Assembly: GCA_020746875.1 (NCBI GenBank) | Contig: JAGTJL010000004.1 | Span: 682,001-746,000, forward strand | Source: Rhexocercosporidium sp. MPI-PUGE-AT-0058 | Taxonomy: Eukaryota; Ascomycota; Leotiomycetes; Helotiales | Direction of reading: 5' to 3' | Length of the DNA: 64,000 nucleotides | In this document: piece by piece, positions 28,779 through 54,746 of the stretch | Layout: each line of letters opens with the position of its first letter | Position numbering within the stretch: the first letter of the stretch is position 1 | Notes under the pieces: model-generated | What the model saw: the letters and a program-made list of their open reading frames with translations, nothing else | Database searches by the model: none | Told to the model about the DNA's origin: nothing | Position numbers and translations under genes: made by a program

Positions 28779-31330
28779 GCGGCAGCTGCAACTGCGATAG
28801 AATTTTAGACTGCATAGACTTGGCGTTAGACATCAATGCTCATTGCTCTTCGCCGACCTAATGTATTTGCTTGGGCATCAATATGCCCAACTGAACCAAA
28901 ACCCTGCGAGTTCTGTTACTTCCCATTGAAGGTTCTAGTACGAGATCTAGGATCAAGCCGGTCAGACTAGATGAGGAGTCTTGGTGTTTTTACCAATTCG
29001 TTTCAAAACATCGTTGAATAAGTAGAAGTCCTTTGCGAGCCCCTGGTATCTCGGACTTAGACGCCTTGTGAACAGCTGAAGTTGTTTCAGTACCAGTGTC
29101 CTCGCCATATCAGACCACCATATTTCCGAGACAAACAAGCTGTAAGAATTTGGTTGAATTGAACTTCATCACCAAGTTATAAATAGTCTGTATCGCTGCT
29201 GCGACGTTTGTTGGATATTATTTCTTCGGCAGTTGGCTTTGGAGACCATACTCGTACTCTTTGGCACCCGTAGCAGTCCTTTGCAGCCTCTGGAATAAAA
29301 TAAAATAAATGGCTTGTATTTCTCGTCTCGGTAAAACACCGCCTCCCTTTCCCTTTCTAAAAAGAAAAACCGATAAAACACAACACTATCGCTAGCTGAG
29401 GAATTATACGGTTAGAACAGAATCAGACACGAAAAAAAAGCAACAAGAAACAGATAGCTCAAGAGTCATCTTTTTCTCTGTGAACAGGGCTTTCTAGCAG
29501 GGAGGCCGCATATATGAATGTTTTAAGTTCTTCTATGCGCGCCCCAAACTCTGCTAGCAAATATTTAAGTAGCCTGCACGATTTAACCAATTACGTCACC
29601 AAACAGACCGAAATCTGAAGGCTGGTTGAAGGGAATCTGTTATTTCGTTAGATATAGGAGGACGTGTTTTTGGAGATTCTGAGGGGTGCTTCGGTTGCAG
29701 GTCGTGGTCGTGTTAGTAAACAGCTAGGCGACCACGTGATGGAGTGGCCGATAGATATCTTTTCTGAGCTTGTGCGTGATTAGTGAGGAAATCGGGGGTG
29801 CTGGATGTGGTCAGTTATGCTGTCTAGATATATAGAGAGCGTAGGCTTAGGAGTTGTTTTCATTTTAGCTTGGAAATTTGAGGATGTTGAATGAATGATG
29901 AAAGCAAAAGTCTTAGAAGCATGTACCCACCAGAGGTCCATCTATCCTTCTCTGATGAGTGTTAAAACATCCGCATGACTTGTCACCTGACTCCTTATTA
30001 TAAAGTTGAACTTGGCTCGTTGTACAGTACATTTTGTCTTCATCGTCTTCTTTCTAACTAGCAAAATATACCGAGCGGATGCACTTCTCATTCCATTCTC
30101 GCTAGTCTCCCCCCATTTCATCCTCGGTGACAAGCAAATTATTGCGCCATACAATCTGTACAGCCTGTGTCGGTCTCCAAGGAAGCTTGAAGGCGTGCTA
30201 TAGTCGAGCCTCGCTCATCCGTCATCCGTCAATCGCCATCTCTCTCCAGCTCTTTACATTGATATCGCATTACTAACTTTCCCGCTTATATCCGTAGGCG
30301 GCCCAAGCATCTTGTAAATAACTTAGCAAATGAAATTCGAAGGCAGGCATTTCTGTATCAAGATGATGAAGTGCTTGCTTGGACTTCCTTCCCACGTTCA
30401 CTTGCGCAACATCCGCAGAAGAGCGATACTGGCCAACATACAACCTGTAACTCAGATCAATACCGGGGTATAACGAGTATTCTTTAAAAACTTATGCCAA
30501 ACATACAACAAATACCATCGCTGTAAAGAAACCAAAATTTGGGCCGACAAATTTGGGGTGGGATGGATTCTGGTCTCTACCACACTGGAAACACACCCAG
30601 GGAATTGGAAGAGGTACGCACGCCATTTTGGGCTTCGTGAGGTCATACTTTGGTGATAGAGACAAACTGTGACGATACTGAGAGCCAGGAGAAAGGATTT
30701 CGGGGATACCTGGTTGGATACATGACTATCTCGACCCCAAGCATCTGGTTTCTTTTAATAAAGCGCTAAGGGGTGACGTATGGGTGGACTCTTGAAGCAC
30801 CTGCAGTCAAAAGTCGGTGTTAGCTTAGCGAACTAATGAAGTAGGAGGATACTTGTTAGAAAGCTTGCATCTGATGAAGATCCCCGTTGAATGTAGGAGA
30901 GGCATTGTGCATGCGATAAAATGATAAATGATTGTTCTGCTGGCGCCTGGAGACTTTCTTGTTCTGACCCCTCCAAACACCTAGGAATAAGTTGAGTAGG
31001 AAAAACTATGAAGAACATACAAAGGAAAATCTCGATCAAATGCAACTGGCCGGACGCAAGTCCGTCTCCTTTTCTTTGCTGGGTCCCAAGAAACACATGC
31101 CTTTTGGAGCTTTGAACCACGGTTTGCTGCTGCGTCCGGCGGTACCCAGAGCCTAGAGGAGAGAGAAAAGCCCCTTCAAAATGTCATCGGTCTGCTTTGT
31201 ATGAGAGACTCTGTACCTACATCCTAATTAGACATAGCTACAAATACATGTGGGCTGCAGGTTCTCAGATCAGAGAGCAAATCACCTAGTTGGCAAATGG
31301 CAGTGCGGCTAGAGAACAAGCAAAGAAAAG
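28779..31330. other. Intergenic region of about 2.5 kb, no gene seen
   Basis: It lies between the helicase stop and the forkhead gene. Reading frames are at most about 95 codons, scattered on both strands and without domains. The right half is probably the promoter and a long leader of the forkhead gene. No tRNA box pair, repeat or transposon end was recognised. Confidence 0.45.
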
Positions 31331-34300
31331 ATGGGGACAATCAATCCCTGTGTGCTAGAGACCAGTCACGTGGAAGAATCCCGGATATTCGTTCTCCATG
31401 ACCTCTGGGACAATGCGGCAGTGTACGACATCCAGATCTGTGATGAGCTTGCCGGCGCCAGACCCTTTCCGCCTGGTCAATACTACCCATTCGAACTGAG
31501 CATGGCTATGGACGAGTTGTCACCCTCTAAACGGAGTGAACTGACAGCGATGACTTCAAACGCCACCCCCGAAGCAGACGCAGAAGCAGAAGCCGAACCG
31601 GTCGCAACTGCAGCAATTCTCGACAACCCGCTGCACAATCCGCTGGCCGACAACGACAACAACAACGAAGCTGCCGCTCTCACCACGCCCCCCGAGAATG
31701 CGACCGATGATGCGCTACAACAGGTCTCGTCTGAAGCAGAAAAAATGCCGCCCAGGGAAGACAAACAGACAGAGAGGCCCTCCGAAGTGTTGGTTACGGT
31801 CGCGAATGCTGGGGATGAAATGACAGAGGGGGACGAAGAGCGGGGAGCGCAAATGCAGCCTTCTCTTGCTGCAACGCCAGCACTGCCAGAGCCAGACATA
31901 TCTCGTTTCGTTGCTGAGATCAATGCGTTGAACTCGAATCCAGATGTTCTGGCACAGATGATACAAGGTCGGGCGTACATACCAGAGCTCATGCCGGACC
32001 TAGGATTCCCTCATGACCAGGATTTACAGTCTGCACAACACGCCAGCATCCCTCATGACGGACAGGTTCCCATCCAAGACAATTGGCTCACCGGTATGAA
32101 CGCAATGGTCCCAGGTATGCCTATGCCGGCTCCTACGATGTTCGAGAATAGCCTCCAAGACGCGGCATATTACAACTCCGAATATGGCCAACAAGCTGTC
32201 GCGGACGCAGATCATAAAGTTCAGGGCTACGCAAAGATCGAATTTGACGATGGGCACTTCTATTTGAATTCATACTCCCTCATGATTGGCAGAGACTTGC
32301 GCCTTCAAAAGCTTCAGATGAGGAACGGGTCCGGGGCTCAACGAATTTCGACCACCAAGGCTACAAAATCAATCGTCAGCGACAGAGGTGGATTCGTTAG
32401 AGAGTTCGACGAGGATGAGTACGAGGAAGGGCACGACCGAAAGCGGAGACGGAAAGATCGCGGGTCCAGTAGGCCCAGCAAGCGCATCAAGAAGTCAAGA
32501 TCCTCCGGCTCATCCTCACATCGTCACTCCAGACGACCCTCTATGGCTCCACCAATGGATATTCCACAACATCAATACTCAGACTCAGAACGCCCTGCCA
32601 GAGTAGATGTCGAGAAGCACCAGCCGTCCCCTCACAAGATGGTTACACTATACATACATCCTCCATACCCGGCTAGCACATCAGATTGGAAAGCTATTTC
32701 GAGAGAGCATTTATTGATCGCGTTCAATTTTGAAAAGAATCTATGGGAGGGTCAAGTCAAGGGGAGAAACGGTTGTTTTGTGGAAGATGAACTCAAAAGC
32801 CAAGACCAAGTTTTCGAACTCACGAACGGCTGCCATTTACAGATTGGCGCGGTAGAGCTATTATTCAGACTCCCAGAGCACATCCCAATTGGCAAAACAG
32901 GAGCCGACGAGGATGAAGGATCTGATGACGAGGATGATAGCACTGCAGCGGGTCTCCAATTCGACACAGATGGTGATGAGCGGCTGAAGTATGTGATGGC
33001 CGGTAAGGAGATGAGTCTAGACTTCCAGAATGAGCGGCGGCAGGCCTTGGGCTTGGACGACGACAGCGATTCGGATGACTATGACGATGAAGACGAGCGA
33101 GAGCGAGTTGATAGGGCAAGCGACGAGGAAGATGACGGAGGAATTGATATCGGCCAGTCTCAACTTTACAGCGACGAGCAAGATTCAGAAGAAGGGGTAG
33201 AGGATGTAGTGGAAGATGAAGAGGAAGAGCGTGACGGTGACCAACAGGAAGGTGAAGTAGAGTACGACTTTGAGGACCTGAGACCCGAACCTGAACCTAT
33301 TACCCCCGAACCCAAGAAGCGAGGAGTCGGTCGCCCACCAAAGGATGGAATATCCAAGCGGCAACAGAAAGAAATGAAAGCAGCGCAGCTTGCCAAAGAA
33401 GCTTCCGAAAAAGAGTCCAAGAAGGCCTCCAAGAAAGAAGAGAAAGTCTCTAAAGAACCTAAAGCACCTAAAGAAGTCAAGGAGATCAAAGAGGTCAAAG
33501 AAGGCAAAGAGGGCAAATCGGCCAAAAAAGGTATTAAAGCCGACCCAGGCAGCCAAGGACTCGCGGATACTGGCAACAAGACTGCCCCTGAGGGTGGTGA
33601 GAAGAGAAAGGTTGGCCGCCCCCGAAAGCATCCAAGACCAGACACGCCACCAGAGCCAAGAGAGAAACGCAAGTACACAAAGAGGAAGCCTAAAGAGCCA
33701 AAAGAGGGGGAAGCCAAAACTGAAGGCGAGGCTGGCGATGATGAAAACAAGGATTCGAAGGAGCAGAAACCCCCTAGGTCGCCCCGATCACCTTCCCCAA
33801 ATTTTGTCGAAGCGGACCTCACTGAAGAACAACTCGCCAAACCTTCTTGTAACTACGTCCAGCTCATCTATGAGGCACTTTCGGAATCGAAGCATAAGCA
33901 AATGTCATTACCACAGATTTACAGGGCCATCCAACGAAAATACCCGTATTTTGTCTGTAGAGTTTCTACAGTTGGATGGCAGAGCAGCGTTCGCCATAAT
34001 TTAGGACAAAATGAGGGGTTTGAAAAAGTGGAGCGTGATGGTAAAGGGTGGAAGTGGGCTATAAAAGAGGGTGCTACCTTCGAGAAAGAGAAAAAGAAGA
34101 AAGCCTCTCCTCCACCTCAGTACCAACCTGGACACATGCAGCCGATATATCCAGGCTATCCTCATGGGTATTCAATGCAAGGCTATCCTCCTCAAGGGAT
34201 GATGGTCCCACCCATGGGTTATCAGATGCACCACCAAATGCCTCCCAATTACCGTCCCGGTCAGCCGCAACAGTATATGGGCCATATGGGGCATCCACCA

Positions 34301-35722
34301 CATATGAACGGGCTCTACCAGCCAGGTTCTCAGCCTCCCATGAACAGTCAACCCTCGTTGACAATTCCACCTGCGTTGGCTCCTCCAGCCTCTACTTCTT
34401 ACAGCTCTCCTTATGGTCCCAAGCCCGCTGCCTCTAATCTTCCTGCAAGTCAGCCCAGCCCTTCAACTGCCCAACCAGGTTCTTCAACAAGTCAACCTGG
34501 CCTTCCAACAAGTCAGTCGGGTCCTTCGTCAAGTCAACCAGGTCCTTCAACAAGTCAGCCTGCTTCTTTACAGAGTCAACCTAATCTGTCGACGAGCCAA
34601 CCAGACACTCCCGCTAGCCAATCAGGAGCACAAGCAGGTCAACCTGGATCCTCAACGGCTCAATCGGGTCCGCCAAGTCAACCAAGACCCTCGAATGACC
34701 CATTGGGGCCATCGAGCAGTAAACCGGGAACTGCGACGAACCGCCACCCTAAAGAATCTGGGTCAACCGACACACCCGTATCTCAGTCAGGACATCAGCA
34801 TGCACGACAGCCCCAATATCCTCCTTATGGTCAATCACAACACTTCGCTCAATCGTTTCCTCCACAGCAATCACCGCCACAACAACCTCCACAACAACCA
34901 CCTACTCAACTATCGCAACTGCAGCAAAAACAAACATACCCAAGCCCTCAGCCATATCAGCCTCAACCGCAACAACCGGCACCTCTTCAAATCCAGGCCC
35001 AGCCTGTACAGCAAATTGGCATGGGCACCTCTGCTCCAGTCAATCAAAAGCTTATGTCCGCTATCGAATCGTTCAGAAAAGCTTTAGCAATTCAAATGGC
35101 CGCAAAGCCTAACGGCATCGCGATACTAGATGGTGCTGTGCGCAAGGTTCTTGGACAGAGTAGTGACGATGCCTCTGGCCATCCGGATGAGGCTCCAATT
35201 GTAGAAGTTCTACAGAACATGCTCAAGAAAATCGGTCTCCTCCCGCAGGCTGGTGCTCCTAATTCGCACAGCGAGCAGATATCGTCCCCACCTCCGCCTA
35301 CACCTCAACCGCAAACCCAATCATACCAACAGGCGAATCACAGCGGAACACAAGCAGGCACATCACAACCTCAACCGCCTGCCAAATCCACTGGATCAGA
35401 AAAGCCGAACCCTACGATTATGCGGCCCACTTTTAACCAGAACCGTCCGAGTGGTACTTCGATCCCAAGACCGCCAATGAACACAATGGGAAGATCTAAT
35501 TCAAATAGCACCAACGCAACAATGCGACAGCAGACTCCTCTGGACTCGCCTGCACCTTCTGCAAACCTCTCGAATGGAGCCAGCACGCCGTTGCCCACAA
35601 ACGAGATAGGTCAGATTGAGGGTCCGAAGAAGGAGGTTGTCGATGATTCGTTGCTCGTCAAGAGTGAGCTGGCGACTGGGCCTTCACCCCCTCCCTCACA
35701 GTCGGCAGAAACGAGATCATAG
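31331..35722 (+). CDS. FHL1: FHA-forkhead transcription factor, FHL1 type
   Basis: Nuclear regulator; yeast FHL1 controls ribosomal protein genes together with IFH1 (family knowledge). A single open exon of 1463 codons. Seen in order: an acidic/Ala-rich N-terminus; an FHA domain that is split, with its first strands at about 297-330 and the rest at about 433-515 (core block WKAISREHLLIAF), separated by a basic low-complexity insert; an acidic Asp/Glu-rich stretch; two AT-hooks (RGVGRPPK at about 664 and RKVGRPRK at about 759). The forkhead domain spans about 836-913 (SCNYVQLIYEALSES, PQIYRAIQRKYPYF, WQSSVRHNLGQNEGF). A long Gln/Pro/Ser-rich tail follows. FHA upstream of forkhead plus AT-hooks fits FHL1 better than FKH1/2. 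The start is uncertain: an internal ATG at 31502 or 31508 could be the true one. Confidence 0.9.
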   Translation: MGTINPCVLETSHVEESRIFVLHDLWDNAAVYDIQICDELAGARPFPPGQYYPFELSMAMDELSPSKRSELTAMTSNATPEADAEAEAEPVATAAILDNPLHNPLADNDNNNEAAALTTPPENATDDALQQVSSEAEKMPPREDKQTERPSEVLVTVANAGDEMTEGDEERGAQMQPSLAATPALPEPDISRFVAEINALNSNPDVLAQMIQGRAYIPELMPDLGFPHDQDLQSAQHASIPHDGQVPIQDNWLTGMNAMVPGMPMPAPTMFENSLQDAAYYNSEYGQQAVADADHKVQGYAKIEFDDGHFYLNSYSLMIGRDLRLQKLQMRNGSGAQRISTTKATKSIVSDRGGFVREFDEDEYEEGHDRKRRRKDRGSSRPSKRIKKSRSSGSSSHRHSRRPSMAPPMDIPQHQYSDSERPARVDVEKHQPSPHKMVTLYIHPPYPASTSDWKAISREHLLIAFNFEKNLWEGQVKGRNGCFVEDELKSQDQVFELTNGCHLQIGAVELLFRLPEHIPIGKTGADEDEGSDDEDDSTAAGLQFDTDGDERLKYVMAGKEMSLDFQNERRQALGLDDDSDSDDYDDEDERERVDRASDEEDDGGIDIGQSQLYSDEQDSEEGVEDVVEDEEEERDGDQQEGEVEYDFEDLRPEPEPITPEPKKRGVGRPPKDGISKRQQKEMKAAQLAKEASEKESKKASKKEEKVSKEPKAPKEVKEIKEVKEGKEGKSAKKGIKADPGSQGLADTGNKTAPEGGEKRKVGRPRKHPRPDTPPEPREKRKYTKRKPKEPKEGEAKTEGEAGDDENKDSKEQKPPRSPRSPSPNFVEADLTEEQLAKPSCNYVQLIYEALSESKHKQMSLPQIYRAIQRKYPYFVCRVSTVGWQSSVRHNLGQNEGFEKVERDGKGWKWAIKEGATFEKEKKKKASPPPQYQPGHMQPIYPGYPHGYSMQGYPPQGMMVPPMGYQMHHQMPPNYRPGQPQQYMGHMGHPPHMNGLYQPGSQPPMNSQPSLTIPPALAPPASTSYSSPYGPKPAASNLPASQPSPSTAQPGSSTSQPGLPTSQSGPSSSQPGPSTSQPASLQSQPNLSTSQPDTPASQSGAQAGQPGSSTAQSGPPSQPRPSNDPLGPSSSKPGTATNRHPKESGSTDTPVSQSGHQHARQPQYPPYGQSQHFAQSFPPQQSPPQQPPQQPPTQLSQLQQKQTYPSPQPYQPQPQQPAPLQIQAQPVQQIGMGTSAPVNQKLMSAIESFRKALAIQMAAKPNGIAILDGAVRKVLGQSSDDASGHPDEAPIVEVLQNMLKKIGLLPQAGAPNSHSEQISSPPPPTPQPQTQSYQQANHSGTQAGTSQPQPPAKSTGSEKPNPTIMRPTFNQNRPSGTSIPRPPMNTMGRSNSNSTNATMRQQTPLDSPAPSANLSNGASTPLPTNEIGQIEGPKKEVVDDSLLVKSELATGPSPPPSQSAETRS
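34428..34695 (+). repeat. In-frame tandem repeat of Ser/Gln/Pro units in the forkhead gene
   Basis: About twenty loose copies of a 12-15-nt unit encoding variants of SQPGPSTSQ (for example QPGSSTSQPGLPTSQSGPSS) lie in the tail of the FHL1-type protein. The units are imperfect and always in frame. They are likely a disordered activation or interaction region and may vary in length between strains. Confidence 0.7.
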
Positions 35723-45506: not shown

Positions 45507-48500
45507 ATGGAAAAACCTTCCGTTTCAGTATGTCCCTTTAGGACGCAAGTTCATGACCCGTCTTCTATTCAGACGGAAGAATACGAAGTACAGACTCAGA
45601 AATTCGAGGTACAAACCCAAAAGTACGAATTCCAAGCGCCTCAGAGATTCGAGGTCCAACAAACAAAATACGGCAAACCCATGACTTTTACGGGTACGGA
45701 GAAGGATCTTGCGCTTCTCGCCAAGTGCAAGAAGGGTACTGCGTTTGAATATCAAGTTGACGGTAAGCTATCCACCCATTGTACTTCCGGATTGTGATCT
45801 GGGTGATCCATGCTCTCGGAAAATACTCAAATCAACATGCATTGAAGCATTGAACAAGGATCAATATTCTCAAACGGATTGGCACATCAGGATTTGACAA
45901 AAAGCTAATTTGGTTGCTCAGACGATTCCGACAATGAATCAATAAAAGAAGGCGAGGACAACGACGACAACCCTGTGTCCGAATCTCCGGCCGAGCTTGA
46001 GGGTGACAACGAGGGGCAGAAAACTATGGACGGTGGGGGGATCCAAAGAATGACGATGGTGGCGGGCCCGAAATTGCTGGGGAAGCCAGCATATCCCAAC
46101 CTGTCACATCGGAGGTCACTGAGGATGGACCTGAAGGTGTTTCTAGTGTGCCGCCGACGGCCCCTGATCCTCCAACCCAGGGTGATGATGTAACTTCACC
46201 ATCCAGTCCCAACAGCGTTCATTTCGCTGATGACACTGCTCCACTTGCTTTCGAGTTCAGACCTAAAGGGAAAAATAACAAGCAATCGAAAAAGGACGCC
46301 AAGAAGGATAAGAAGCAGGATAAAAAGGCCAAACAAGCCGAGAAGGAACTTGAACCGGAATCCATCGTTGAAGTCGAGAATATCGAAGAAGAGGCTCCGA
46401 AGCTTGAAAAGAAAGGAAAGGAATCCAGGAAAGACAAGAGGCAAGACAAAAGGTCGAAACAGGCCAACAAGGAACCCGAAACTGAGAAGCCAGTTGAGAC
46501 CGAAAAGCTCGAAGACGACTTTCCGAAATCCGGCAGGAAGGGGAAGAAGGGAAAGAAAGCAGACAAGTCCTGGGAGCCTGAACCGACAATTGATGAGGAG
46601 GTGAAGCCAGAAAAAGCCGAGAAGCAGGAGAAGGGAGGTAAGGGTAAGAAAGACAAGAAGGGCGGAAAGGGGAAAGAGAAAGCTGGTAAAGCTTTGGCAG
46701 GTGTAGCTGCGATAGGTGCAGCTGCCGCCATAGCCAGTGAAATGACACCTCCACCGTCAGACGAGTCGCCATCAGATAGCCCTGGTGAGGGCGAATCTGG
46801 TCCCGCCGACGACCTAGATCCCGTCGACAACATCACTACTTCAGACCCAGCTCCCTTGACGGATGTTGTGGAAAGTATAGATGTAGCTCCAGCTTCGGAG
46901 CCAGAAGCTATAGTCGAACCGACAGAGGCTCCTATCGAAGCCGAGTCGGCACCAAGTCCTGATGAGCCTGCTGGTGAAGAGCCATCAGCACCTGTAGTAA
47001 GTTCCTATTGCCCCAATGTATTTCAAGTCTAACCCTATGAAGGAAGAAACACCAGCTCCCGTAGAGTCTGCACCAGAATCAGTGGTAAGTCACAAGCTAC
47101 GGATATGACATAAACCGTTGACAGTACTAATATTTCGACAGGTTGAAGATATTCCAACCCCAGCGATTGAAGAGTCCACACCAGAAGCGGTAGTACGTTG
47201 AAGTCCCAATTCAGGCAAATGACATGCATACATACAGATGAACTGATCTTTCAGCAGGCGGAGGAAGCTCCAGCGATAGCGATAGAGGAGTCAGTCCTGG
47301 AACCTGTTGTAAGTCAAAGCCCCAAGCCATGCAAACGGCATACACCTGAGCCATTGTACTTACGCCTCAGCAGGTTGAGGAAGCCTCAGCCGCAGCTATA
47401 GAGGACCTAGCCCTAGAACCTGTTGTAAGTCAAAGCCCCAAACAAGGCATACGACATACACCTTGGACAATTGTGCTAACGGCTCAACAGGTTGAAGAAG
47501 TTCCAGCCCCATCTACAGAGGGGTCGGCTCCAGAAGCTCCTGTGGTAAGTGCCCACTTCCAATCGCGAATCTCAAAACGTCCCTCCGCTCAAGATCGGGT
47601 TCGAATTTTCAGCCGCTGACGACTTTTTGTAGGTCGAAGACGTCCCCAGTCTAGCTGAGGAGCGAAGTCCGGATCTAGCGGTAAGTTTTCTCGAGCCAAG
47701 TCTTCCCCGGGACAGTCTGACTCTGATCTGGAAATTCAATGTTGATGTTCAAGCAGGTAGAGGAGACTCCAGCCGAAGAAGTTGAGGAGGAGAGCCCAGC
47801 GCCTGTGGTAAGTTCTCATTCGATGCAACCTCTTGTCTATCTCGCCTCCAACAAGGCGCCGTTACTAAGTCGCTCAGGTTGATGAAATTCCTGCCCCAGA
47901 GGCAGAAGAAAGTGCCGTCGTAAGTCTTGATCCGAGACTACTACATTATGACACTCCAATAATGATTGAGATAGGCTGAGGACACAATTGCTCCCCCTGA
48001 AGAGCCAGCACTGGTCGTAAGCTTCGATGAATATAATTAGCCGAGAATTCTTGGCTACACCGATGTTCTATCTCTAACAGCTTTATAGGTCGAGGATACA
48101 CCGGCTCTAACTGAAGAAGACCCTAGTTCTGAACCTGCTGTGAGTTTTGTTCAAACTTGATTCTCGAGATTTTGGTTTGAGGGGGAAGCGAATTGCTAAT
48201 TTCGTCTAGGCTGAGGATCCACCGGCTCCGATCGAAGAAGAGACAGCTCCTGCGCCTACTGTGAGTTTCAAACGAAGAATTTCCTCGGGAAGTCTCATTC
48301 GAAACAAGAGTTAATTGCTGACTTTAGCTAGGTTGAGGATATACCGACTCCTGTTGAAGCGGAGTCTAGCCCCGCGCCAGTGGTAAGTCTCCCTCGATGC
48401 ACTTCTCCTGACGACCTCAGTGACAGCAAAAATCTAAATCTCACTTCGCTTAGGCGGAAGATACATCGGATCCTGTTGAAGAAGAGTCTAGCCCTCCAAC

Positions 48501-51500
48501 TGTAGTAAGTCAAGTCTCTTATTTCAAGTCGCCGCCAATGTTCATGACCTTGAAATACCGATCTGACTTGTCTTTCAGGAGGATGCACCAGCTCCAATCG
48601 TCGAAGAGCAGGCTGCTACTGAAACAGCAGTGAGTCTTCTTAGTTCCACCCTTCTATCTACCCACCTGTTGTCTTACCTTTCGTAGCTCTGGCTGACTTG
48701 AATAGACTGAAGATGTACCGGCCGTAGAGGATAGCCCGGCACCTACCGTAAGCCTTCTACCCACCAACGATTCTTCAGGGAGTACCGGGCCGGAGACCCG
48801 TCGCTAACGTTTCTGTAGGAGGCAGAAACACCAGCCTCGGATCCAGTTGTGGATGAACCCAGTTCAATACCAGTTGTGAGTTCTACCCTTTGAAAGGCTT
48901 CTGGCAGCAATTTATTACTGTTGTTCATCTTCGCTACAAACAGTACTGACCTCCATCTTCTAGGCCGAGGAGGCAGCAGCCACAATAGATGATGTAAATT
49001 CCAGTCCTGCTGTAAGCATATCTTCCTCCAATCTCCTTAATTCCGAAAAGCCTATTCATGCTCCTTCGAACCCAAGTAGAGCAATACTAACCTCATATTC
49101 TCCATATCCATAACTTTCTTCGTACTTACATATTTCAGGAGGATGATAGCCCACCAGATGCTCTTGAGGAGGTTTCCGAGTCCGAGCCAGAACCAGTGGT
49201 GAGTCGATCCAAACCTCGTTACCGCTTTGGGCGTAGCTACAGGCAGATAGCTAACAAATGTTAGAAGGAAGAAGAGCCTTCACCGCCGGCCGAAGAAACG
49301 CCAGCTGGTGAGGACACGCCAGCTTGTGACCCGGAACCAGAGCTTGTAAGTTGTTTACGAATATTTTCCTAAGTGTTTCGTTCCATGTCGTCGGGATAAC
49401 TAGTTTCACGGCTGACATGTAATAGGCAGCTGAAAGCCCTGAAGCTCCAAGCGAGCCAACTCCTGGTCCCTCGGAAGAAGAGACAGTTCCTGAACCCGTA
49501 AGCTCCTTCTCGTGTTCGCTCCTCCGAGTCTAGTAGAATAATCGTCCAGCTCGCAATTTCTTCTGTCGCGAGAGCTCATTTTACTGACACGAGAACAGAC
49601 CACCGAGGCTCCAGAATCAGTTGCAGAGGAAGCTCCTGTTGTAGTAAGTCGACCACCTTTTCACCTAACCCTAAACTCCACTACACTACCGAAGTTTAAA
49701 GCTCTTTGTGAACGGAAACGGGACTATCCTTGGAGTATGCCTTATGTATTGGGCCCCCAATGCTGATTTATATAGGTCGAGGAAGAGCCTCAAGCGGCTG
49801 CTGAACCCACCGATGAAGTGGTAAATACACTTTCTCTATTCAAGTCACCCAATATAAATTTTCTGCGCCGTGGCTGGCGTTCTTTACCTCTCCCCCCACC
49901 AATTTAATTCGCAATTTCTGAACCACAGCTAATTATTACCAGATTGAGGAGACCCCTCAGCCATCAGAGGAAGAGCCAGTCCCGACGGTAAGTAATTTTC
50001 AATCGATGTGTACAAGTCGTAACTTCCGTACGCGACATTGCCTGGATCCCAAAACTAACTTTGGCAGGCTGATGAGACTTCTGAGCCCGCTGAGCCCGCT
50101 GAGCCTGAAGCTTTGGCCGAAGAGACTCCAGCTCTAATAGTAAGTGTAAATCCGTCCATATTTGTACCAGTTTTTCAGTCAAATGCGGACTGTGATTGTG
50201 CCAATGCATCTCGAGCTTTGTTACAAGCACTGCACCAACCCTGTACCTTTCGAAAGTGAAAAATTTCAACATTAATTTTCGTACAGGTTGAGGAATCAAA
50301 GGAAGAGGAACCAGCCCCAATAAAGACCGAGGCTTCTCCAGTTGAAAGTGACCTACCTCCCACAGAGACGGTAAAAGAGCCGCCCGCAGAGACTAGCGAC
50401 GATACCGAGGAGGCGGAAGAATCGAAAGATGGCGACGATTCGAGTCCCCTCCAGCCCAGTGAGCCTGAGGCTCCTGAAGTCGTTGCTGAAAATGAGACGG
50501 CGCCTGTTGTAGATGACCCAGCTCCGTTGGAGAGTGAAGTCGCACTGGACTCGGCTGTAAGCTACCAGTTCTTCATTCAGATAAGCTTAAGCGATGGCTA
50601 ACGTGGGTAGGCTGAGGAATCTACGCCAGAAGAGCCGTCAGCGGACTCTGAGGAACCAGAAAAGACCGAAGAAAGTCCCACCAGTGATGGACAAGGGGAT
50701 TCGGCACTGACTGAAGTGGTACGCGCACTACTCATCATTTTTTTCATTGAGTTATTAGCTGTCAGGAATAATTTTGGAGGTATCATAGATATGTGGGATA
50801 ATGTGAGCTAACATGTACCGCTTAGGCCCAGGGCTCGGAACCTACCGAGGCAAGTGATGAACTACCCTTGGTCATGGATGCTGCAGAGCAAAGCACCGAG
50901 GAGAAGGAAGCCCAACCTGAAATTGTTGAATCCGAGGCGCTGGTAAGCTAAATGTGACGAGCCATTTTGGCATCATGAACGACTGACATAATTGCAGGCC
51001 GAGGAGTCGGAAAACAAGGAGGAGGTGGAGGTCCCATCTAGTTCTCCCAGTGATGAAAAGCCTGATGAGACTCAATCGGCTCCCGAAGCAGCTCCTGTCG
51101 AGGCTGACAACATAGTGAGTTATCCATTGATTCATTCAAGTCAGAGCGAGCTTATGAACTAACCCAATGTAGGTCGAAGAAGTCGAAGAAGTCGAAGAAG
51201 CCGAAGAAGTCGAAGAGGTCGAAGAAGTCGAAGAAGTCGAAGAGGTCGAAGAAGTCGAAGAAGTCGAAGAAGTCGAAGAAGTCGAAGAAGTCGAAGAAGT
51301 CGAAGAAGCGGACACAAGTCCAGCCGATTCCGAGCCGCCAACAATTGACAGCGATCAAACTCCGGCTTCTGATGAGTCCAAGGAGGACACTGAAATTCCA
51401 ATAAGTGACCAACTCGAGGAGAATCCAGCCATCGAGACCGCCGATGCTCCCGAAGAGGTCAAGGAAGAGCCCGAAACTACGTCGACTGAACAGCCTGAAC

Positions 51501-54500
51501 TAAACCCCGCGTCTGTCGAAACTGCGCCAGAGGTTAGCGAATCTCCAACTGAAATTGAATCGTCTGAACTCAGCGAAGAAATATCCGAGACCGTGGTCGA
51601 AACGCCTGCCGAACTCGAAGAAGCTACTAAGTCTATCGAGGAGGATAGCAGTGAGGTATTGGCTGAAGACACGCGTGCCGATGATGCGGTAGATGCATCT
51701 GTTCTTGAGGAGAATGGCGAGCCTTCAGGAGATTCTAGCGAGCCATCGGCCGAGCCCGAAAGCCCTCTCGTTGCTGAAGAAGCCGTCGAGTCGTCTCCGG
51801 ATGAGGTTGTGGCCGAGAGTGAACCGGTTTCCGTTGAAGAAACTCAGGAAGAATCTCAACCCGAAGAAATAGCCGCCAGCGAAGAGGCACCGGCTCCTTC
51901 GGTCGTCGAAGAGAAGGAAGAATGCCTTGCTCCAGATGAATCTTCGACGCCCGTCGAAATTGAGGAGCCTGAGATATTAGCAAACGAAGTGGAGGAGCCA
52001 GAAGAAGAAGAATCCTCGGAGCCTATTGAGCCCGCAGCTGAAGAGACCAAAGACGAGCCGACTCCAGTTGAGACTATCGCTAGTGAGCCTATTGTCGAAG
52101 ACTTGAAGGATGATAGTAATCCGGAAGAAGGGTCCGAATCTCATGCTGTGGAAGAACTCAAAGCGGAACCCACTGTCGATGAAGCCAAAGAGGTGAGACA
52201 CATGCACAACACCATCATTCTGCAAAAAAATTAGCACAATATCCCGAACTTAGCTGACAACAGTTCTAGCCCGAAATTGAAGCTGAGCCTGAAACCACTG
52301 AGTCAGCTGTTGACGAGGTTAAAGAGGTGAGTCTTCGGGAAAGAATCCTATTTCATACGTCTCGCTAACGACATCAGGCCGAACCAGAGGTCGCAGCTCC
52401 TGATGAAAGTGGACCTTCTGACCCCCCAGAATCGACCGAGGCGCATAGCTCAGACGAGTCCAAAGAAGTTGAGGTTGAAAGCGAAAGCCAACCAGCTATC
52501 GTTGAGAAGGTCGAGGATGACGAAGAAGCTGTTGAAAGCACCCTCGAGCCTGTTGAGGATGCCGAAGAGGTACGAACACTGCCCTGAGTGTGCTTGTATC
52601 GGGAATGAAAATTAACTTCATATAGGAGGAACAAGCCCCTGTTGTGGCAGTTGAAGACGAAGTCAAAGAACCGGAGGCTGTGGTGGATAGCACCCCTGAG
52701 ATTGTCGAAGAAACAAAAGAGGTATGGAAAAGTCCCAAGCAGTTACGCTTTACACACTCCAAAACGAGGAGATGTGTCGTCTAGTCAACTCCCGAATTCA
52801 GAAAATAACTTCTTCTAGGAGGTACAAGCTGAACCGGCCCCAGAGGAGGCTAAAGAGCCGGAGCCTGCCTTGGAGACTCCCGACGTAGTTGAAGAGGTAT
52901 GTCAATTTTACCAAAAGCAAGTGAGAACATGGACCTAAATATTCACAGGCCGCCCAGCCAGAAGAGGCTGAAGCACCAGAACCCGAGCCGGAGGCTGACA
53001 GTACCCCTGAGATTGTTGAGGAGATTAAAGAGGTATGCTGGAGTGCGAGTGTTGAAAAACAACTGCTGATGCATAGTAGCCCGAGGCAGTGCCCGAAGAA
53101 ACAAAGGAGTTGGAGCCTGAACCGGAGCCCGTTGTCGATAGTGCTCCCGAGGTATTGGAGGTATCCCAGCCGGTATGTACCTTCAAATTCGGTTGGCTCA
53201 CTAAAGTCCACGGTTGACAAACAAATTCTAGGATGAACCAAGCGTTGAACCAGAGGCTCCCGCCGATGAGCCCAAGGAACCTGAGCCTGAGAAGGAGCCT
53301 GAGCCTGAGAAGGAGCCTGAGCCTGAGCCAGAAGCTATAGTTGAAGAAGTCAAAGAAGTATGCCCACTTCTGTCCATGTCACGAAATCACCACTAACTTT
53401 GGCAGGTTGATCCTGAAACCGATAGTCCTTCTCCGCCCCAGGAACTGGAAGCTAGTGAGGAAATTGTCGCGGAAGGCGGCGACGAACCCAAAGACAGCTC
53501 CGTCCTGGACGATGCCTTACCCATTGCGGCCGGAGCAGCAGCGGCTATAGCTGTCGGAGCCATAGCAGCTGAGGTTCTGTCTGACGATAAGCCCGTAACC
53601 GATAAAGCCATAGTCGAAGAACCCGAACAGCTTCCAGAAGTGGCCGAGGAGCCTGGATCGGGAGAGACACCCTCAACCCCGAAATCGGACAAAGACAAAC
53701 GTAGACATCGCTCTTCGAGACATTCGCGTTCGAGTCACCACAGCAGCTCCAGCAAGGACGTGCCTCGTGAGGAACGACCCCATACGAAACGCCGTGAGAC
53801 CGAGCCATCCCCCAAGTCATCTCCAAAGACCTCTCCGAGATCCGCCAGGCCAATTCGCCATGACAGCGGGGTAAGTACTGGAAGTTCTGGCTCTCATAGA
53901 CATCGCAAGGATCGAACTCCTGAGGAGCAAGCCGCCCACGATAAGCGAAAGGAGGAGAAGCGGGCAAAACTACGGGAGGCAGAGGCCGAATTGACGAAGT
54001 CGATACCCTTGGAAAGCGCTGTAGTAGAGGAGGAACCAGAAGCTCCAATTCCAGCTATCCCCAGGCGCATGTCGTCGTCTCGACGATATAGCAGCAGCAA
54101 GTCTGCCACATCTCATGGCAGTACAGCGGACGGCGACAAACGACCTAATTTACTGGGTTTGAAGGGCGTCAGCGTTGTAAAGAGCCCCTTCGTCGCCACC
54201 GATAAATCTCATATAAAAGAAGTGGTGGAGAAGGTCAAGGCACCTATCATCGACCGACCTCGTTTCTCCATGGATCACGAGCGGCCAAAGCTTTCTCGAA
54301 GAGAGACGACAAGCCACCATACGAGATCTCATCGTAAGGAGAAAGAAGACAGTGACAAGGCGGAAGAAGAGAGAAAGGCCAGAAAGTCTCGGCGGGAGTC
54401 TGAGAAAGCCATGGTGGCTGCTCGGGAAGAAGTCGCTGACAAAGCTAAGAAGCTCCAGGAGAAAGAAGACGAGGAGCGCAGAGCTAGGCGCGAAGAACGC

Positions 54501-54746
54501 AGACTCAAGAGAGCGGAGCTGGAAGCGCTAGAGAAGACTTCCGAGTTCAGTGGTGGGAAGAACTCGGAAGTTAGTGCTGATAAAGGCAAGGAGGCCGAGA
54601 GGATCCGGGACGGCGAAGCTGTTCGAAGTAAGGAGAGAGTGCACCGACATCGTCACAGACGTGAGAAGGAGAAAGAGCGAGAGAAGGAGAAGCCGAAGGG
54701 ACCGCTTAATTCCTTATTGTCGTCGATGAAGAAGGTGTTCAACTGA
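45507..54746 (+). CDS. Giant micro-exon gene for an acidic Glu/Pro/Ala-repeat scaffold (about 2094 aa)
   Basis: About 39 exons, extreme for a fungus. Exon 1 (45507-45762) has repeats such as EVQTQKFEVQTQKYEF. Exon 2 (45922-46996) is acidic, then Lys-rich (KKDAKKDKKQDKKAKQ), then a hydrophobic Ala run (ALAGVAAIGAAAAIASE). Next come 36 exons of 42-1020 nt, mostly 42-81 nt, encoding degenerate units like VEExPAPxEEExxPAPV. The last exon (53406-54746) has a second Ala run (IAAGAAAAIAVGAIAAE), a Ser/Arg/His-rich zone (RSSRHSRSSHHSSSSK) and a charged coiled coil. Every intron but the first is phase 0. One base is missing in a G6 tract at 46035-46040, so exon 2 needs +1 to read through. Involucrin-repeat proteins or the Woronin-body tether leashin are the nearest types I can think of, but this is a guess; no enzymatic domain is seen. 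Confidence 0.75.
47142..47490 (+). repeat. Three consecutive homologous exon+intron units of 116-117 bp
   Basis: Units 47142-47257, 47258-47373 and 47374-47490 each hold a 51-nt exon and a 65-66-nt intron. The introns of units 2 and 3 share their first 17 bases (GTAAGTCAAAGCCCCAA) and are similar to the end, including an ACATACACCT/GCATACACCT block. The intron of unit 1 resembles them more weakly. Similarity that extends through the introns shows duplication at the DNA level of whole modules. Confidence 0.8.
51173..51307 (+). repeat. Minisatellite: 15 tandem copies of a 9-bp VEE unit
   Basis: Fifteen copies of GTCGAAGAA (copy 4 begins GCC; copies 5 and 8 end GAG) encode Val-Glu-Glu repeated fifteen times at the start of the 1020-nt exon of the micro-exon gene. 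The near identity at DNA level points to recent slippage expansion and likely length variation between strains, always in frame. Confidence 0.95.

What the first reader, a model, noticed from the sequence alone, without database searches (positions are those of the whole stretch)
46997..53405. A fungal gene with about 39 exons: a 6.4-kb array of micro-exons encoding acidic repeats
From 47043 to 50139 there are 24 consecutive exons of 42-81 nt, each bounded by a clean donor and acceptor, followed by larger exons of the same composition. Filamentous ascomycete genes usually have a few introns, and coding micro-exons in such numbers are exceptional. The alternative view, unrelated scraps, is contradicted by all 37 introns being phase 0, by the shared boundary pattern (exon starts V/A/E-E, ends P-V/A or K-E) and by an intact 1.3-kb last exon. 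This is the best candidate in the window for an undescribed mode of gene architecture.
Basis: partly seen in the sequence, partly recalled or inferred. Interest (0 to 1): 0.92.

Follow-up and report, generated by a model that had tools for sequence, protein, structure and literature searches.

The report
Fungal gene of tandem phase-0 mini-exons
A mould gene codes for a long, negatively charged protein linker partly through two dozen small, in-frame exons that look like repeated copies of one exon and its intron, a layout known from animal collagen and titin genes but unusual in this kind of fungus.

Summary
A gene model with all phases allowed gave 37 introns between 46997 and 53405, all phase 0, including the 24 exons of 42-81 nt. 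A strict scan found 13 such exons in a row, against at most 2 in 52 background strand-stretches and 200 shuffles. They look coding: in motif codons 2 and 3 of the units, positions 1-2 are conserved and position 3 is nearly random. In order, they fit the Rhynchosporium agropyri orthologue better than 400 of 400 permutations; exons 2-13 alone do so weakly. Neighbouring small exons resemble each other and introns 2-5 share sequence, so the 24-exon part most likely grew by tandem duplication of a roughly 51-nt exon with its intron. The whole array encodes 1,204 acidic Pro-rich residues (net charge -398). I infer a spacer or tether, like titin's PEVK or fungal leashin, but it is neither. No RNA evidence was available. 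'Micro-exon' fits loosely: 18 of 24 are at most 51 nt, none at most 36. An unexplained frame break lies near 46035-46040. A new variant of a known architecture, not a new mode.

The parts
45507..45762 (+). 5' exon: start codon and conserved N-terminal stretch, followed by a phase-1 intron 45763-45921 (boundaries read by eye)
   Evidence: One place in the genome; 58 of 85 residues identical, ungapped, to the start of the R. agropyri protein P0001; AlphaFold2 on the single sequence is uninformative, mean pLDDT 45
45922..46996 (+). Second coding block: acidic start, lysine-rich stretch and a short Ala/Gly hydrophobic segment. The reading frame changes inside it, near the six-G run 46035-46040
   Evidence: aligns with P0001, clearly from about 46079 on
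47043..50139 (+). 24 small exons (model exons 2-25), 42-81 nt, commonest length 51 nt (9 of 24), all phase 0, mostly encoding (V/A)-(E/D)-(E/D)-x-P ... P-x-P-V units
47251..47508 (+). Youngest duplicated block: 2.2 copies of a 116-bp exon-plus-intron unit, 78% matches
   Evidence: Tandem Repeats Finder; intron pairs 4/5, 2/5, 3/5 and 3/4 are the top four of 666 intron pairs
50287..53357 (+). 12 further exons (57-1,020 nt, model exons 26-37) of similar acidic composition, all phase 0, without the 17-residue period
51173..51308 (+). 9-bp tandem repeat (mostly VEE, 15.1 copies) at the start of the 1,020-nt exon
53406..54746 (+). Last exon, 446 codons plus stop: Ala/Gly hydrophobic segment and basic Arg/Ser/His/Lys-rich C-terminus
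   Evidence: 72% identity with P0001 over query residues 1540-1980, which lie in this exon; one place in the genome

Best explanation
It is a real, single-copy protein-coding gene of a fungus related to Rhynchosporium. Its middle is an array of symmetric (phase 0-0) exons, of which the 24 small ones grew by repeated tandem duplication of a roughly 51-nt exon together with its short intron; the 12 larger ones have a similar composition but no such unit, and their origin is open. The spliced array encodes a 1,204-residue acidic, Pro-rich and presumably disordered chain between two conserved ends, which I take to act as a spacer or tether, possibly elastic. Because the introns are short (46-147 nt), splice sites can be paired across the intron, so exon size should matter little. 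Every internal exon can be gained, lost or skipped without breaking the frame, whereas retaining a single intron breaks it in 36 of 37 cases. Shown here: anatomy, coding constraint on the unit motif, order shared with an orthologue, one copy in the genome. Inferred: duplication (strong for the small exons), the splicing itself (strong but without RNA), the spacer function (moderate to weak).
For: Gene model with 37 phase-0 introns; strict chain of 13 against at most 2 in background and shuffles. In motif codons 2 and 3, positions 1-2 conserved and position 3 near random (entropies 0.25/0.54/1.72 and 0.25/0.41/1.81 bits), and position 2 of codon 5 conserved at 0.25. Exon order matches the R. 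agropyri protein better than any of 400 permutations for exons 2-37, 14-25 and 2-25. Neighbour similarity of the small exons 0 of 5000 permutations, still 5 and 4 of 5000 in two sets without the youngest block. Introns 2-5 similar, 116-bp unit repeat. Period of 17 residues in exons 2-25. Array 29% E, 15% P, 12% A, 10% V, net charge -398. All 36 internal exons are multiples of 3; 1 of 37 introns could be retained in frame. Leashin, a fungal tether, also has an acidic Pro-rich repeat linker that its authors compare with titin PEVK (PMC2690989, passages).
Against: No transcript was seen. The splice-only model recovers just 17 of 37 introns exactly. For exons 2-13 alone the order test is weak (21 of 400 permutations as good). 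Outside introns 2-5, intron sequences show no clear similarity, so duplication there rests on the exons. The 17-residue period is absent from exons 26-37 and weak in the orthologue: 0.154 against 0.112 expected in residues 565-730 and not among its top lags over 540-1880. The frame break near 46035-46040 leaves open that this copy, or this assembly, does not encode the full N-terminus. P0001 is itself a gene prediction as far as I could see. The tether function rests on composition and layout alone.
Confidence: 0.72

Rival explanations
1. Titin-like tuning: the array is not only spliced but skipped in a regulated way, so that cells set the linker length by choosing how many phase-0 exons to include.
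For: All 36 internal exons are frame-neutral; differential splicing of titin, of PEVK exons above all, gives isoforms of different length and elasticity (PMC6105519, passages).
Against: No RNA data. Frame-neutrality follows from duplication alone. Alternative splicing is uncommon in fungi: one paper gives about 6% of fungal genes (PMC11121469, passages).
Confidence: 0.15
2. Introns were inserted into an existing repeat-coding exon, by introner-like elements or intronisation at repeated proto-splice sites, rather than copied with the exons.
For: Introner-like elements are linked to intron gain in some fungi (PMC4457414, abstract); most introns here are not alike.
Against: The DNA from 47043 to 50286, introns 2-25 included, has no second place in the 62.7-Mb genome at that search's sensitivity (introns 1 and 26-37 were not searched); the introns of the small exons sit at the same unit boundary and phase; introns 2-5 resemble each other together with their exons; neighbouring exons are similar.
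Confidence: 0.08
3. It is a decaying or non-coding relic: repeats with chance splice-like sites.
For: The reading frame changes near the six-G run 46035-46040.
Against: No stop inside the 38 exons of the model, and mostly canonical splice sites; conserved amino-acid motif with near-random third positions; C-terminal exon 72% identical to another species.
Confidence: 0.04
4. It is the leashin (LAH) gene itself, the Woronin-body tether.
For: Acidic Pro-rich repeat linker between conserved ends, as in LAH (PMC2690989, passages).
Against: Predicted LAH proteins are 5,936-7,480 residues outside Neurospora, whose 10,821-residue locus encodes two proteins (same paper); this gene encodes about 2,090. 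The paper finds LAH in all sequenced Pezizomycotina; here three homologues turned up, the two named ones from helotialean genera (placement recalled), though two of the three searches scored only the 7,999 and 7,993 candidates sharing most words.
Confidence: 0.06

Closest known systems
Fibrillar collagen genes (54-bp exons)
   Same: Long run of small, length-related exons for a repetitive chain, with whole exons as the unit of growth (PMC4450265, passages: a block of 23 contiguous 54-bp exons)
   Different: Animal gene; Gly-X-Y triple helix; here exons of commonly 51 nt encoding acidic Pro-rich sequence in a fungus
Titin PEVK region
   Same: Many small exons encoding a Pro-, Glu- and Val-rich chain (PMC6469411, passages: 113 annotated PEVK exons in human)
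   Different: Almost no lysine here (0.2% in the small exons), no Ig domain in the four pieces scanned, far smaller, no known splicing regulation
Schistosome micro-exon genes (MEGs)
   Same: Very small symmetric exons that allow in-frame alternative splicing (PMC4350168, passages)
   Different: MEG exons form most of the coding region and the products are described in secretions or glands; here the 24 small exons are 1,254 of the 5,943 nt of coding sequence modelled from 46007 on
Leashin (LAH) of filamentous ascomycetes
   Same: Highly acidic Pro-rich repeat linker between conserved ends (PMC2690989, passages)
   Different: Much larger; the passages I read mention at least ten introns at the Neurospora locus but no array of small exons
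RAG0_09220 of Rhynchosporium agropyri (P0001)
   Same: Orthologue: 72% identity in the C-terminal part, collinear acidic middle
   Different: In one alignment it lacks six stretches of 10-22 residues across the counterparts of model exons 3-15; 17-residue period weak, own 42-residue repeat; its exon structure was not seen

Membership tests
Leashin (LAH) | Giant size (5,936 residues or more in the predicted homologues) | tested here: not met
   About 2,090 residues by summing the exons, frame break ignored
Leashin (LAH) | Acidic Pro-rich linker between conserved termini | tested here: met
Leashin (LAH) | N-terminal domain binding the Woronin-body protein WSC | not testable with these tools
   No LAH sequence was at hand to compare
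Titin PEVK | Pro-Glu-Val-Lys composition | tested here: not met
   K is 0.2% of the small-exon part and 2.4% of the whole array; P, E, V, A make 70% of the small-exon part
Titin | Ig and fibronectin domains | tested here: not met
   No Pfam family at or above its cut-off in four pieces: 5' exon, second block, 1,020-nt exon, last exon; the other exons were not scanned
Tandem symmetric exon array (collagen-like architecture) | Run of same-phase exons, each a multiple of 3 | tested here: met
   36 of 36 internal exons, 37 of 37 introns phase 0 in the model
Tandem symmetric exon array (collagen-like architecture) | Origin by duplication of exon with intron | tested here: met
   116-bp unit repeat and introns 2-5; neighbour similarity of the 24 small exons. 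Clear at intron level only for the youngest block, and not shown for exons 26-37
Micro-exons | Exon of at most 51 nt (definition in PMC4317164, start of abstract in the listing) | tested here: inconclusive
   18 of 24
Micro-exons | Exon of usually at most 36 bp (definition in PMC11121469, passages) | tested here: not met
   0 of 24
Schistosome-type micro-exon gene | Small symmetric exons make up most of the coding region | tested here: not met
   1,254 of 5,943 nt modelled from 46007 on
Introner-like elements | Similar introns at many places in the genome | tested here: not met
   The DNA 47043-50286 with introns 2-25 matches only itself (only best candidates scored, simple repeats skipped; introns 1 and 26-37 not searched)

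The most novel reading that the evidence does not exclude
A fungal counterpart of the titin spring: an exon array whose copy number, by duplication in evolution and by frame-neutral skipping within the cell, sets the length of an acidic tether between two cell structures.
Probability: 0.13. Interest if true: 0.85.

Novelty: new variant of a known kind. Interest (0 to 1): 0.55.

Why it matters
If transcripts confirm it, this is a compact natural test case: 37 consecutive introns where retention breaks the frame (36 of 37) and skipping does not, in a group whose genes usually carry few introns (recalled). It would let one measure splicing fidelity per intron, test how intron definition handles small exons, and watch an exon array grow between related species. 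It would also show that tandem duplication of symmetric exons, known from animal structural proteins, arose in filamentous fungi too.

Tried and rejected
Introner-like origin: the 3.2-kb stretch 47043-50286 searched against the whole genome found only itself. Pfam searches of four pieces gave no family above cut-off; two matches below it (DUF2613 E 0.66, DUF5662 E 0.13) were ignored. AlphaFold2 of the 5' exon was uninformative. The search with the orthologue's first 210 residues found nothing but that protein, and a search from P0003 found only P0002 besides itself. Weak intron pairs outside introns 2-5 (z up to 3.4 among 666 pairs) were not counted as evidence; within introns 2-5, pair 2/4 reached 3.0 and pair 2/3 was not in the top 25. 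An intron bridging the frame break was considered: a simple scan listed six GT-AG pairs giving the right frame, all with poor donors, and they lie in or next to a stretch conserved in P0001, so I judged it unlikely. A plasmid search with the last exon found nothing. The 42-residue repeat of the orthologue is not in the window's array.

Is it in print? Searches (20 of 90 papers listed; 5 of 5; 10 of 3,991; 12 of 58; 8 of 572; 4 of 4), seen as listings, showed no fungal gene of this kind in the rows listed. One 2024 paper says that functional microexons had not been described in filamentous fungi before, while noting predicted ones in fungal genes and tests in fission yeast (PMC11121469, passages).
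Full report
What is there. The window is a 64-kb part of a 3.19-Mb contig in a 62.7-Mb assembly of 60 contigs, from a fungus close to Rhynchosporium judging by its best protein match. I number exons as: 1 is the open frame ending at 46996, 2-25 the small exons, 26-37 the larger ones, 38 the last. A Viterbi gene model with all phases allowed returned 37 introns between 46997 and 53405, every one phase 0, plus one spurious intron in the last exon, which I dropped. Introns are 46-147 nt, median 71. Donor and acceptor sequences are mostly canonical.

Is it more than chance? A strict scan without an amino-acid model found 13 chained small exons (47975-49643). Background gave at most 2 in 52 strand-stretches, and 200 dinucleotide shuffles gave at most 2. 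A model using splice sites and stops alone recovered only 17 of 37 introns, or 12 at the highest penalty. So splice signals alone do not give the full model; coding content is needed as well.

Is it coding? Two lines say yes. Among the 24 small exons, codons 2 and 3 keep their first two positions while third positions are close to random (entropies 0.25, 0.54, 1.72 and 0.25, 0.41, 1.81 bits), and codon 5 keeps its second position; codons 1 and 4 vary more. This suggests selection on the protein motif over a long time. Secondly, the exons joined in order align with the R. agropyri protein better than all 400 permutations of exon order, for exons 2-37 (z 5.1), 14-25 (z 4.8) and 2-25 (z 4.2, only just above the best permutation). 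For exons 2-13 alone the result is weak, with 21 of 400 permutations as good. The orthologue is probably itself a prediction, but it was not made by me.

How it arose. Tandem Repeats Finder shows a 116-bp unit of exon plus intron at 47251-47508. Intron pairs 4/5, 2/5, 3/5 and 3/4 are the four most similar of 666 pairs. Other introns show no clear similarity, but neighbouring small exons remain more alike than permuted ones (0 of 5000 for all 24; 5 and 4 of 5000 in two sets without the youngest block). The small-exon part has a 17-residue period with a weaker one of 8. The larger exons 26-37 do not share it, so the duplication claim is for the 24 small exons. In the orthologue the period is weak (0.154 against 0.112 expected in residues 565-730; not among the top lags over 540-1880). 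In one alignment the orthologue lacks six stretches of 10-22 residues across the counterparts of exons 3-15, two of them 17 residues long and nearly coinciding with exons 3 and 15; another alignment pairs exons 2-5 without a gap, so this is uncertain. The homologues P0002 and P0003, found through the C-terminus, show no 17-residue period among their top lags. The DNA of the small-exon part occurs once in the genome, which speaks against introner-like elements.

What the protein is. The array encodes 1,204 residues, 29% E, 15% P, 12% A, 10% V, net charge -398; the small-exon part has 0.2% lysine. It lies between two short Ala/Gly-rich hydrophobic segments and ends in a basic tail. No Pfam family passed its cut-off in four pieces scanned. 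By analogy with leashin and with titin PEVK I infer a spacer or tether; this rests on composition and layout only. It does not meet the size of leashin or the composition and domains of titin.

How it would work. In fungi with short introns, splice sites are thought to be paired across the intron (recalled), so exon size need not hinder splicing. All 36 internal exons are multiples of three, while 36 of 37 introns would break the frame if retained. Errors by skipping would give shorter chains, errors by retention would give broken messages. Whether skipping is used is unknown.

Open problem at the 5' end. The 5' exon matches the orthologue's start (58 of 85 residues), and the block from about 46079 on matches it in another frame; the switch lies near a six-G run at 46035-46040. 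An assembly error is the simplest reading, a real frame change is not excluded.

Verdict. As an architecture it is a new fungal variant of tandem symmetric exon arrays, not an undescribed mode. Interest is moderate, rising if transcripts show length variation.

Noticed in passing
46035-46040: Reading frame changes near a run of six G within the second coding block, while the R. agropyri protein aligns on both sides of it.
   Followed up: partly
51173-51308: 9-bp repeat (95% matches, 15.1 copies) encoding mostly VEE at the start of the 1,020-nt exon; perhaps young and length-variable.
   Followed up: no
46694-46744 and 53517-53567: Two short Ala/Gly-rich hydrophobic segments flank the acidic array on both sides; possible membrane or self-association elements.
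   Followed up: no
47425-47490: The only one of the 37 introns whose retention would keep the frame open.
   Followed up: partly
P0001 (R. agropyri protein), around residues 1451-1540: The orthologue has a 42-residue repeat in its acidic middle that the window's array does not show: repeats seem to grow independently in each lineage.
   Followed up: partly
31313-35722: A 1,469-codon open frame with a Forkhead domain and a marginal FHA domain and a Gln/Pro/Ser-rich low-complexity C-terminal part.
   Followed up: partly
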